DNA of 64,000 nucleotides from Candidatus Symbiopectobacterium sp. 'North America' (GTDB taxonomy: Bacteria; Pseudomonadota; Gammaproteobacteria; Enterobacterales; Enterobacteriaceae), in assembly GCF_015762685.1 (NCBI RefSeq), contig NZ_PEHF01000095.1:124001-188000 (forward strand), in the 5' to 3' direction. Positions 2,953 through 40,896 of this stretch are shown here, one piece after another. The number at the start of each line of letters is the position of its first letter. The stretch's first letter is position 1. The translations under genes and the position numbers were made by a program. The notes beneath the pieces were generated by a model, which worked only from the letters and a program-made list of their open reading frames with translations, ran no database searches and was not told the DNA's origin.

Positions 2953-3074
2953 ACTGTCATTCCCGCCCACCACCGTCATTCCCGCGCAGGCAGGAATCCC
3001 TCGACGAAACACGTTTCTTCTCACAGAGATCCCCGGCTTTCGCCGAGGATGACGAGGGGTAAAGTGACTTTGCC
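2953..3074. repeat. Dispersed intergenic repeat, copy 1 (inverted)
   Basis: This roughly 120-bp segment is, in reverse complement, nearly the same as 40723-40846. Shared blocks include GGCAAAGTCACTTT, CCTCGTCATCCTCGGCGAAA, GCCGGGGATCTCTG and GGGAATGACG. It contains a hairpin with arms around CCCCGGC and GCCGAGG (3031-3048) and a CATTCCCGC/GCAGG-type palindrome (2978-2998). It follows ftsP, with no gene between 2878 and the broken esterase at 3114. It resembles non-autonomous palindromic elements of enterics, but I cannot name the family. Confidence 0.8.
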
Positions 3075-3113
3075 ATTGGTCTAAGGGGGCGCATGGCTCT
3101 CCTTTGTTTTGTA

Positions 3114-19813: not shown

Positions 19814-20278
19814 TCATCGCAAACGATGGATAACCTGATTGCTGCTGCCGCGCCAGATTAACGCAGGATCTTTGAGATCCTGTACAAATTTACCGTCTAC
19901 CAGTACGTTGATAAGCGCCACAAACTGTTGTTGTGCGGGCGTAAGCTCAGCGAGCAGGTAGCCTGTCCACATCCAGATGTCTTTTCCGGGGCATTCGGCA
20001 TGAATGCGCTCCACCAAACGCAGCACATCCGGTACGTTTTGCGGATGGAGCGGATCGCCACCGGAGAGCGTCAAGCCTTGGCGCGAAATCTGCGTATCCT
20101 GCAAATCGGCAATGATCTGGTCTTCCAGCGCCTGAGTAAAAGGCTGGCCGGAATTGAGCCGCCAAGTGCTTTTATTGTAGCAACCTGGGCATTGATGCAC
20201 GCAACCGGAAACAAACAGCGTACAGCGCGTGCCGGGCCCGTTGACCACGTCAACCGGGTAGTACTGGTGATAATTCAT
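19814..20278 (-). CDS. nrdG: Anaerobic ribonucleotide reductase activating protein
   Basis: NrdG is a radical-SAM enzyme that installs the glycyl radical on NrdD for deoxyribonucleotide synthesis without oxygen. The 154 residues equal Escherichia NrdG. The [4Fe-4S] motif CVHQCPGC lies at about 26-33 and the SAM-binding GGDPL at about 74-78. The gene is intact, but its partner nrdD, just upstream on the same strand, lacks its 5' half, so NrdG has no visible substrate in this locus. Confidence 0.94.
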   Translation of the reverse strand: MNYHQYYPVDVVNGPGTRCTLFVSGCVHQCPGCYNKSTWRLNSGQPFTQALEDQIIADLQDTQISRQGLTLSGGDPLHPQNVPDVLRLVERIHAECPGKDIWMWTGYLLAELTPAQQQFVALINVLVDGKFVQDLKDPALIWRGSSNQVIHRLR

Positions 20279-20412: not shown

Positions 20413-21358
20413 TTAGCCCAGTTGACCATTGCCGAGGTGCTTGATCCGGCGTTTGACCTCTTCCTGCTTCCCAGCGTTAAACGGACGTGCATCCGGGCTG
20501 CCCAGATAGCCACATACCCGACGCGTCACAGATACGCGTGCGGAGTCGTGATTGCCACATTTCGGGCAGGTGAAGCCTTTGCTGGTGCACTCAAACTCAC
20601 CGGTGAAACCACACTCATAGCACTCATCGATCGGCGTATTGGTGCCGTAGTAGGGCACACGGCTATAGCTGTAATCCCAAACGTCTTCCAGCGCTTTAAG
20701 GTTATGTTGCAGGTTCGGATATTCGCCGTAGCAAATGAAGCCTCCGTTTGCCAGCGGTGGGTAGAGCAGTTCAAAGTCGATTTTCTTGTAAGGATTCACC
20801 TTCTTCTCCACGTCCAGGTGGAAGCTGTTGGTGTAGTAACCCTTATCGGTCACGCCTGGTATCACGCCGAATTCAGCGGTGTCGATACGGCAAAAGCGGT
20901 TACACAGGTTTTCACTCGGCGTACTGTAAAGGCTGAAACCGTAGCCGGTTTCTTCTTTCCACTGATCGGTCGCGGCTTTCAGGCGTGCGACGATGGCGAC
21001 CGCCTTTTCACGCAGTTGCTCATTGTTGAACACGTGTGTCTGGTTGCCAAACAGCGCGTTAATGGTCTCATGAACCCCAATATAGCCCAATGAGATCGAT
21101 GCCCGACCGTTTTTGAAGATCTCAGCGACGTTGTCGTCCGCTTTCAGGCGTACACCACAGGCACCTTCCATATACAGGATTGGAGCGACACGGGCTTTGA
21201 CGTTTTCCAAACGTGCGATGTGCGTCATCAACGCTTTTTTCGCCAGTTGTAGACGATTATCCAGCAGGTTCCAGAAACGCTCTTCGTTATGTTCCGCTTC
21301 CAGCGCGATGCGCGGCAGGTTGAGGCTGATTACCCCGAGGTTGTTGCGACCATTACCA
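20413..21358 (-). pseudogene. nrdD: Anaerobic ribonucleotide reductase, 3' fragment
   Basis: Only about the last 312 of the roughly 710 residues of the class III ribonucleotide reductase NrdD remain. From GNGRNNLGVISLNLPRIALEA onward the family sequence is intact, including the zinc-ribbon cysteines (CYECGFTGEF and CPKCGNHD) and the C-terminal glycyl-radical segment RRVCGYLGSPDARP. The 5' side is replaced abruptly at about 21350-21360 by the body of hxpA, which reads into it out of frame. The N-terminal ATP-cone and most of the barrel are missing here. A complete copy elsewhere cannot be excluded. Confidence 0.92.
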
Positions 21359-21836
21359 CCACGCACTCATGCGGTTCCAGACCCAGGCTTGCAGCACCCA
21401 GCAGATAAGCATCCGGCTGCGACTTACCGCGAGCCACCTGTTCGGCGGTGATAAACACCTGAGGCTGCGGCAATTGCCCGGCACGATGGCGCGCATGGGC
21501 GATAGGTACGGTGCCTGATGTCACGATAGCCCAGGGAATGCCGAGCGCGTTGAGACGTTCAAGGAGTTGGCTTGCGCCCGGCATCGCCTGCACGCCCTGC
21601 GTGTCAGACGCTTCGGTGCGCTCCAGCTCATCAAACTCACGCTGGATCTCCGCTTCGCTTTTACCCTGCAAAAAGTGGCGCAGCGAGGTGATCGCCTGTT
21701 TGCCATGGATAAAATCAAGCACCTCCTGGGGTTCGATATCATGGGCTACCGCCCAATTAACCCAGGCACGCTCCACGGCTAGTAGTGAATCCACCAGCGT
21801 ACCATCCAAATCAAACAGGAAACCTTTACACTCCAC
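21350..21836 (-). pseudogene. hxpA: Sugar phosphatase HxpA (YfbT), 3'-truncated
   Basis: HxpA is a haloacid-dehalogenase-family phosphatase acting on sugar phosphates. The nucleophile motif FLFDLDGTLVDS is near the start, and the following cap and core sequence is intact to LGLEPHECVVV. The family should then continue with VEDAPAG, which carries the last metal-binding Asp; here it stops and runs into nrdD sequence. About 55 C-terminal residues are lost. The most likely start is the GTG at 21836, five bases after GAGG. Its usual neighbours yfbU, yfbV and ackA follow. Confidence 0.9.
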
Positions 21837-21864
21837 AACCACCTCTTTGTTTTATTTCACCGGT

Positions 21865-22359
21865 TCAGGCATTGATGATTTGCGCAATCTCTACGGCGCT
21901 TAAATGATACTGACGCGGACAGGACACCCACACTGGCAGCATGCGGTTGTATTTTTCCCACATTTTAGTCTGTGCGTTGAAGCCGTGAGTACCGGAATCG
22001 AAATGCGGGTAGCGCCCTTCAACATGCACCATGAAACGAACAAAGCCGAGATAGCGCGCTTCGGTCGCGGCATCAAAGCCCAAAAAGGCAAGGCGACGCT
22101 GATCCAGATCCTTGCGCTCTTTCAGGTTATCCTAGGAAACCTGCAAGGCGTGGTGCATTTCCATAATATTGATGATGGTGCGGCACACGTCTTCACTGAG
22201 TTCGCCAAATTCTCGATCCAACTCACGCATTTGCAGCCCATAGCCGCGCTCGACGATGGTTTGCAGCCGACGATAGCGTTCTGCATTGTCCGGATCCATC
22301 ATCGTCATCATTTTGTATTGATTCGAAAGGATCAATCTCTGGGCATTCGTCATTTCCAT
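21865..22359 (-). pseudogene. yfbU: YfbU family protein, amber mutant
   Basis: YfbU is a conserved 164-residue enterobacterial protein of uncertain function. The whole frame is readable from [18 protein letters not shown] to EIAQIINA and matches Escherichia closely. One in-frame TAG at 22132-22134 stands where homologs have Trp (HALQVSW; TGG to TAG), cutting the product at 75 residues. AGGAG lies upstream of the start. It is one of several stop-codon lesions in this block. Confidence 0.92.
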
Positions 22360-22528
22360 CGTGCTCTCCTGAACCTCTATAGTACCGGCCTGACGCCGCT
22401 GACTCGTTTAACCTGATACCAGAATCGCATACCCCAAAGTAGGAAGATAGCGCTAGCCTCCGGTTTTTTGATTTAAAACAGAGGGGAAGGACAAAGTAAT
22501 GCTATTCACACGCAAAGGGTGAAAAGGG

Positions 22529-40539: not shown

Positions 40540-40896
40540 TAATTCTCTCACTTACGAACGATGCCAACATAATCTTTCTAGCACTAGCAGTCATTACCGC
40601 CAGTTCAAGAGAGCGTAGCGCCGCTCATCATACTGTTCGCGGCGGATTCTAACAGAAAAAAAACGTTTGCGTAGCCTATTTCCCAACGATTTCACCGATA
40701 GGTGAATTTGCTGGCAGCGTATGGCAAAGTCACTTTTCTTCCTCGTCATCCTCGGCGAAAGCCGGGGATCTCTGCAAGAACGAACGCATTTCTTCTGCAA
40801 GAGATTCCCGCCTACGTGGGAATGACGTGGTAGGCGGGGATGACCGTTTTAGTCGGTTTTGCCAACAACCTCAGCGGAATTAGCCCTCTGGCAATC
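40540..40896. other. Region between dedD and cvpA
   Basis: The 357-bp region contains the cvpA promoter side and, at 40723-40846, copy 2 of the dispersed repeat. No gene was seen. Confidence 0.7.
40723..40846. repeat. Dispersed intergenic repeat, copy 2
   Basis: This 124-bp element is nearly the reverse complement of 2953-3074. It begins GGCAAAGTCACTTT, holds a hairpin ATCCTCGGC-GAAA-GCCGGGGAT and a second palindrome ATTCCCGCC-TAC-GTGGGAAT, and ends GGCGGGGATGAC. It sits between dedD and cvpA, which are close together in Escherichia, so it is an insertion relative to that order. Confidence 0.8.

What the first reader, a model, noticed from the sequence alone, without database searches (positions are those of the whole stretch)
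21335..21375. Breakpoint fusing nrdD to hxpA: a rearrangement scar that removes class III ribonucleotide reductase
The 5' part of hxpA (a gene of the yfbU-ackA block) ends at ECVVV and the sequence continues as the second half of nrdD. In Escherichia these loci are far apart. Both genes are truncated at the same point, with GTGGTGGT-like microhomology. The product NrdG is intact but its substrate is halved here, so anaerobic DNA precursor synthesis may be lost.
Basis: partly seen in the sequence, partly recalled or inferred. Interest (0 to 1): 0.55.

Follow-up and report, generated by a model that had tools for sequence, protein, structure and literature searches.

The report
Rearranged, broken nrdD gene
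In this relative of insect symbionts the tail of nrdD, a gene for making DNA building blocks without oxygen, is joined to the head of an unrelated gene and both are broken; this is ordinary genome decay, although three of the five genomes held for its genus, this one included, have a broken nrdD, each in a different way.

Summary
The junction is in the sequence. nrdD from about codon 408 to 720 ends at window 21353; the first 163 codons of hxpA begin at 21354; no bases are shared. In four congeners the two halves lie at separate loci, about 2.6 Mb apart in the single-contig G002. The genus is Candidatus Symbiopectobacterium.

nrdD codons 1-249 sit on another contig that starts with the right end of a multicopy IS110-family element. 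The DNA downstream of hxpA, on a third contig, ends at the same IS end. No intact nrdD is readable. Two large-subunit genes of other ribonucleotide reductases are open. The 473 and about 416 bp beyond the breakpoints were not found, but short contigs that I took read N, so the reciprocal junction is untested.

nrdD is also broken in G001 (two frameshifts) and G002 (nonsense codon 616), and intact in G003 and G004.

Best reading: a rearrangement scar in a decaying, IS-rich genome, with class III ribonucleotide reductase probably lost. The kind is well known. A side observation, an IS110-family element that seems to favour terminator hairpins, may be more interesting.

The parts
20413..21353 (-). 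nrdD 3' part, about codon 408 to 720 (glycyl-radical domain kept; codons 1-407, 57% of the gene, absent here)
   Evidence: tblastn with the intact G003 NrdD, 96.8% identity; PF13597 and PF01228
21353..21354 (.). breakpoint, blunt, no shared bases
   Evidence: alignment to G001-G004 at both parental loci; split hits
21354..21842 (-). hxpA (HAD-family phosphatase) 5' part, 163 of about 221 codons, cut just before the ED pair of VVVED
21330..21353 (-). 7 out-of-frame codons and stop that end the truncated hxpA frame, inside nrdD DNA
19814..20278 (-). nrdG, open over 154 aa, beside a partial substrate gene
   Evidence: 97% identity to L058

Best explanation
A chromosomal rearrangement breakpoint in a decaying Symbiopectobacterium genome. 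Two loci that lie about 2.6 Mb apart in a relative were joined end to end without homology, cutting nrdD and hxpA. The other nrdD part and the other hxpA flank each abut the right end of an IS110-family element, so IS-driven reshuffling is the likely background (inferred). Shown: no complete nrdD can be read. Inferred: anaerobic ribonucleotide reduction is lost, and this is tolerated because other ribonucleotide reductases remain and the niche supplies oxygen.
For: The junction query splits into two separate loci in G001-G004. Window 3316-21353 matches G002 341687-359825 and window 21354-41300 matches G002 2976002-2996875; G001 and G003 also keep the two sides on different contigs (G004 was not in those two calls). 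Blunt junction and no N: an assembler that joins by overlap has none to use here (inference; the assembler is not known). Only two NrdD pieces in the genome. nrdD codons 1-249 on C3 next to the IS end; C103 ends at the same IS end downstream of hxpA. Two PF02867 large subunits open over 737 and 765 aa (small subunits not checked). nrdD broken by other lesions in G001 and G002. 55 of 149 family genomes have no NrdD match; the 20 of these that are shown have 2.4 Mb or less.
Against: No reads were seen, so a chimera is not excluded. The breakpoint carries no IS remnant. In G002 both loci have the same orientation, so the join is not one inversion of that gene order; more steps are needed. The 473 and about 416 bp beyond the breakpoints were not found but may lie in unreadable short contigs. 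One genome of only 0.8 Mb in the family keeps a full NrdD (G135), so loss is not a rule for small genomes. That this genome is host-bound is inferred from its genus, IS load and 87% completeness.
Confidence: 0.8

Rival explanations
1. Assembly chimera: the two loci are intact and apart in the real genome and were joined wrongly.
For: Draft of 124 contigs, 87% complete; no reads; the sequences beyond each breakpoint cannot be looked for in the unreadable short contigs.
Against: No overlap at the junction; no N; nrdD resumes only 473 bp beyond the breakpoint on C3, at an IS end, and the hxpA flank resumes about 416 bp beyond on C103, at the same IS end, so neither parental locus was found whole.
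Confidence: 0.12
2. Reciprocal exchange: the partner junction (hxpA 3' end joined to the nrdD middle) survives as a piece of about 0.9 kb between two IS110-family copies.
For: The missing 473 and about 416 bp lie between the breakpoints and the IS right ends on C3 and C103, and both IS left ends would face inwards (inference).
Against: Not found in the readable assembly; deletion of both pieces explains the data as well.
Confidence: 0.3
3. The fused region makes a useful new protein or a working C-terminal NrdD.
For: A 317-codon frame opens with GTG at 21366 and keeps the glycyl-radical domain.
Against: The two genes are out of frame across the join; NrdD lacks codons 1-407; HxpA lacks the ED pair; hxpA is also frameshifted in G001.
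Confidence: 0.03

Closest known systems
Transposase-associated gene loss in Symbiopectobacterium of bed bugs (PMC12710357, passages seen)
   Same: Whole regions lost, often next to transposases; many pseudogenes
   Different: That text was not searched for nrdD; this breakpoint has no IS at the join itself
Pseudogenes of Symbiopectobacterium endolongispinus (PMC13345370, passages seen)
   Different: There by frameshifts, here by rearrangement; nrdD does not occur in that main text
IS proliferation and gene inactivation in Sodalis glossinidius (PMC3091646, passages seen)
   Same: A young insect symbiont with many IS copies, two of its five main types of the IS110 family
   Different: Another genus; nrdD does not occur in that main text

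Membership tests
Class III (anaerobic) ribonucleotide reductase NrdD | Complete NRDD protein, N-terminal part included | tested here: not met
   About codon 408 to 720 in the window; codons 1-249 on another contig; codons 250-407 not found in the readable genome
Class III (anaerobic) ribonucleotide reductase NrdD | Glycyl-radical domain | tested here: met
   PF01228, E 2.8e-30
Rearrangement pseudogene | Two genes that are apart in relatives are truncated at one join | tested here: met
Rearrangement pseudogene | Join present in the real chromosome | not testable with these tools
   No reads available
IS-mediated recombination | IS copy at the join | tested here: not met
   Blunt join without IS; IS ends lie 473 and about 416 bp beyond it, on the partner contigs
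HAD phosphatase HxpA | Full protein with the ED pair near the C-terminal part | tested here: not met
   The frame leaves hxpA after VVV, before ED

The most novel reading that the evidence does not exclude
The scar is a by-product of an IS110-family element that inserts in intrinsic terminators and similar T-run sites. Copies landed in the hxpA terminator and in a T-run of nrdD (both flanks read TTTTTATGGC), and the DNA on their left-end sides was then rearranged. With the frameshifts in G001 and the nonsense codon in G002, nrdD would have been lost repeatedly and independently in host-associated branches of the genus, marking abandonment of anaerobic growth.
Probability: 0.25. Interest if true: 0.45.

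Novelty: new member of a known kind. Interest (0 to 1): 0.22.

Why it matters
It is one clear example of how a genome in decay loses a metabolic capacity. nrdD is broken in 3 of the 5 genomes held for the genus, by three different lesions, which suggests that anaerobic DNA precursor synthesis is dispensable there and makes a testable prediction about growth without oxygen. The event itself is ordinary.

Tried and rejected
Microhomology at the join: looked for at both parental loci in four congeners; none.

The same junction in other species: a 35-base junction pattern gave 0 stretches in genome contigs; the tool warns that the window's own genome, or one very near, may be left out there.

IS4 as the element at the contig ends: one search shows an IS4 transposase next to the matching end on an E. 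coli plasmid. Rejected, because the IS4 copy is flanked on both sides by the same 13 bases inside another element, whose left end lies upstream of the IS110-family transposase and matches 30 places of the own genome, each within 12 bases of a contig end. The IS110-family transposase domain PF02371 was not found in the readable own genome (0 of 1), so the assignment rests on the two ends only.

One inversion or one IS-IS recombination as the whole explanation: rejected as sufficient, because both loci have the same orientation in G002 and the IS ends face the partner contigs, not the join.

Papers: Symbiopectobacterium gave 31, 25 listed. nrdD + endosymbiont + pseudogene + anaerobic gave 2, unrelated by title and start of abstract. 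IS110 + intrinsic terminator gave 0. IS110 + rho-independent gave 7; by title and start of abstract none is on terminator targeting, the nearest being on ISPpu9 in repetitive extragenic palindromes (PMC8450116). The IS1111 query gave 1 review (listing only). Three of four of Symbiopectobacterium, insertion sequence, pseudogen, IS110 gave 91, 10 listed.

Full report
What was checked. On the minus strand the window reads hxpA from 21842 down to 21354 and then nrdD from 21353 down to 20413. A 961-base query across the join splits at query position 454/455: one part matches an nrdD locus and the other an hxpA locus in each of the four congeners G001-G004; of the 40 genomes searched, the own one included, 24 have any match. 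Local BLAST against the parental loci of the four congeners ends at 21353 and starts at 21354, or 21355 in G004. Printed side by side, the bases show no overlap: beyond the breakpoint the nrdD loci read CGTG[AG]ATCT, and before it the hxpA loci read TC[TC]TC.

Which organism. The window's NrdG is 97% identical to that of Candidatus Symbiopectobacterium endolongispinus, 96% to Candidatus Symbiopectobacterium sp. NZEC151 and 94% to a record labelled Serratia marcescens 1001295B. The contig lengths of these records (156620, 591814, 187763) equal those of G001:C10, G003:C23 and G004:C2, so I take them to be the same genomes. G002 is one contig of 4942431 bases, probably S. purcellii SyEd1 (inferred). 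The window genome is a draft of 4560933 bases in 124 contigs, 87% complete. Its host is not known to me.

Synteny. Window 3316-21353 matches G002 341687-359825 as one match, and window 21354-41300 matches G002 2976002-2996875 in three collinear pieces, both on the plus strand. The join links two loci about 2.6 Mb apart in that record (2.3 Mb the other way if circular). In G001 and G003 the two sides lie on different contigs. Because the orientation in G002 is the same, the join is not a single inversion of the G002 order.

The other halves. The own genome has two NrdD pieces. tblastn with the intact G003 protein places about codon 408 to 720 in the window and codons 1-249 on contig C3. C3 (3433 bp) also holds frames that I read as ridA-, pyrI- and pyrB-like (names recalled), and both its ends carry the same 60-odd bases, in opposite directions. 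Contig C103 carries the DNA downstream of hxpA and ends in the same sequence. A 50-base piece of it occurs exactly at 13 places in the genome, all within 19 bases of a contig end. In 83 plasmid records a similar sequence is found; in the one that I opened, it is the downstream end of an element with an IS110-family transposase, interrupted by an IS4 copy. The left end of that element matches the own genome at 30 places, all within 12 bases of a contig end. So both partners of the join abut the right end of an IS110-family element. The transposase domain itself was not found in the readable genome. Between breakpoint and IS, 473 bp of nrdD (L025:5827-6299) and about 416 bp at and beyond the hxpA 3' end (L024:5587-6002) were not found in place; about 200 bp of the latter are a dispersed repeat that matches at many other places. 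This absence is weak evidence: the short contigs of the assembly that I took read N, so a piece of this size could be there.

Is it an assembly error? No reads are available. The blunt join, the absence of N, and the fact that neither parental locus was found whole argue against it, but a closed genome is needed.

Function. HxpA is cut after 163 of about 221 codons, directly before the ED pair, and ends 7 foreign codons later. NrdD in the window keeps the glycyl-radical domain but lacks codons 1-407. The frames do not match across the join. NrdG is open. Two large subunits of other ribonucleotide reductases (PF02867) are open over 737 and 765 aa; small subunits were not checked. Loss of anaerobic DNA precursor synthesis is inferred, not shown.

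Recurrence. In G001 nrdD has two frameshifts (tblastn pieces 1-447, 446-705 and 701-720 in changing frames), in G002 a TAG at codon 616, ahead of the glycyl-radical motif, while G003 and G004 are intact. Sequencing errors in G001 and G002 cannot be excluded. Taken at face value, 3 of the 5 genomes held for the genus have a broken nrdD, by three different lesions. hxpA is also frameshifted in G001 and complete in G002, G003 and G004. Across the family 94 of 149 genomes have a match. Of the 55 without, 20 are shown, all of 2.4 Mb or less; 35 are not shown. Against a simple rule, G135 with 0.8 Mb keeps a full-length NrdD. Some larger genomes have split, partial or stop-ridden copies (for example G045, G047, G073, G123). 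Loss of nrdD in small, presumably host-bound genomes is therefore common.

What it is like. Papers seen in passages describe the same kind of decay: loss of regions next to transposases in Symbiopectobacterium of bed bugs (PMC12710357), truncated genes as the commonest pseudogenes in S. endolongispinus (PMC13345370), and IS spread, IS110 family included, in Sodalis glossinidius (PMC3091646). I found no report on nrdD in this genus, but only bear on that.

Side observation. The IS110-family element seems to insert between the stem and the T-run of terminator hairpins. Of 30 left-end places, 29 had the end motif; 18 of these 29 flanks fold at -8 kcal/mol or lower over 30 nt, against 12.75% of 2000 random 30-mers of the window, a control not matched for position or G+C. 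Of 14 right flanks, 13 start with TTTT and 1 with TATTTT. Against it: 11 of 29 left flanks do not reach -8, and the nrdD site in the congeners has the T-run without a hairpin that I could see (not folded). The empty sites in G002 downstream of hxpA and at the far end of C3 do read as hairpin plus T-run.

Verdict. The repeated breakage of nrdD and the insertion preference of the IS110-family element are the parts worth a second look.

Noticed in passing
own-genome contig ends; L044 end, L023 both ends: An IS110-family element seems to insert between stem and T-run of terminator hairpins: 18 of 29 left flanks fold at -8 kcal/mol or lower (12.75% of 2000 random window 30-mers, unmatched control); right flanks start TTTT in 13 of 14 and TATTTT in 1. 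11 of 29 left flanks and the nrdD site do not show a strong hairpin.
   Followed up: partly
L025 (G002), L027 (G001): nrdD is broken by other lesions in two congeners: a TAG at codon 616 in G002 and two frameshifts in G001. Sequencing error not excluded.
   Followed up: yes
21865-22359: The yfbU-like gene next to hxpA is split into ORFs of 75 and 72 aa, consistent with an in-frame stop; not compared with relatives at protein level.
   Followed up: no
about 2953-3082 and 40721-40872: A dispersed repeat of about 110 bp with dozens of matches in G001 and G003 and fewer in G002 (40 candidates scored per genome).
   Followed up: no
22506-22513: Length variation between the yfbU-like gene and the next one: G002 has about 126 and G004 about 271 more bases here than the window, while G001 and G003 align through without such an insert.
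   Followed up: no
L060: A record labelled Serratia marcescens 1001295B has a contig of the same length as G004:C2, a genome placed in the window's genus, so its label is probably wrong.
   Followed up: partly
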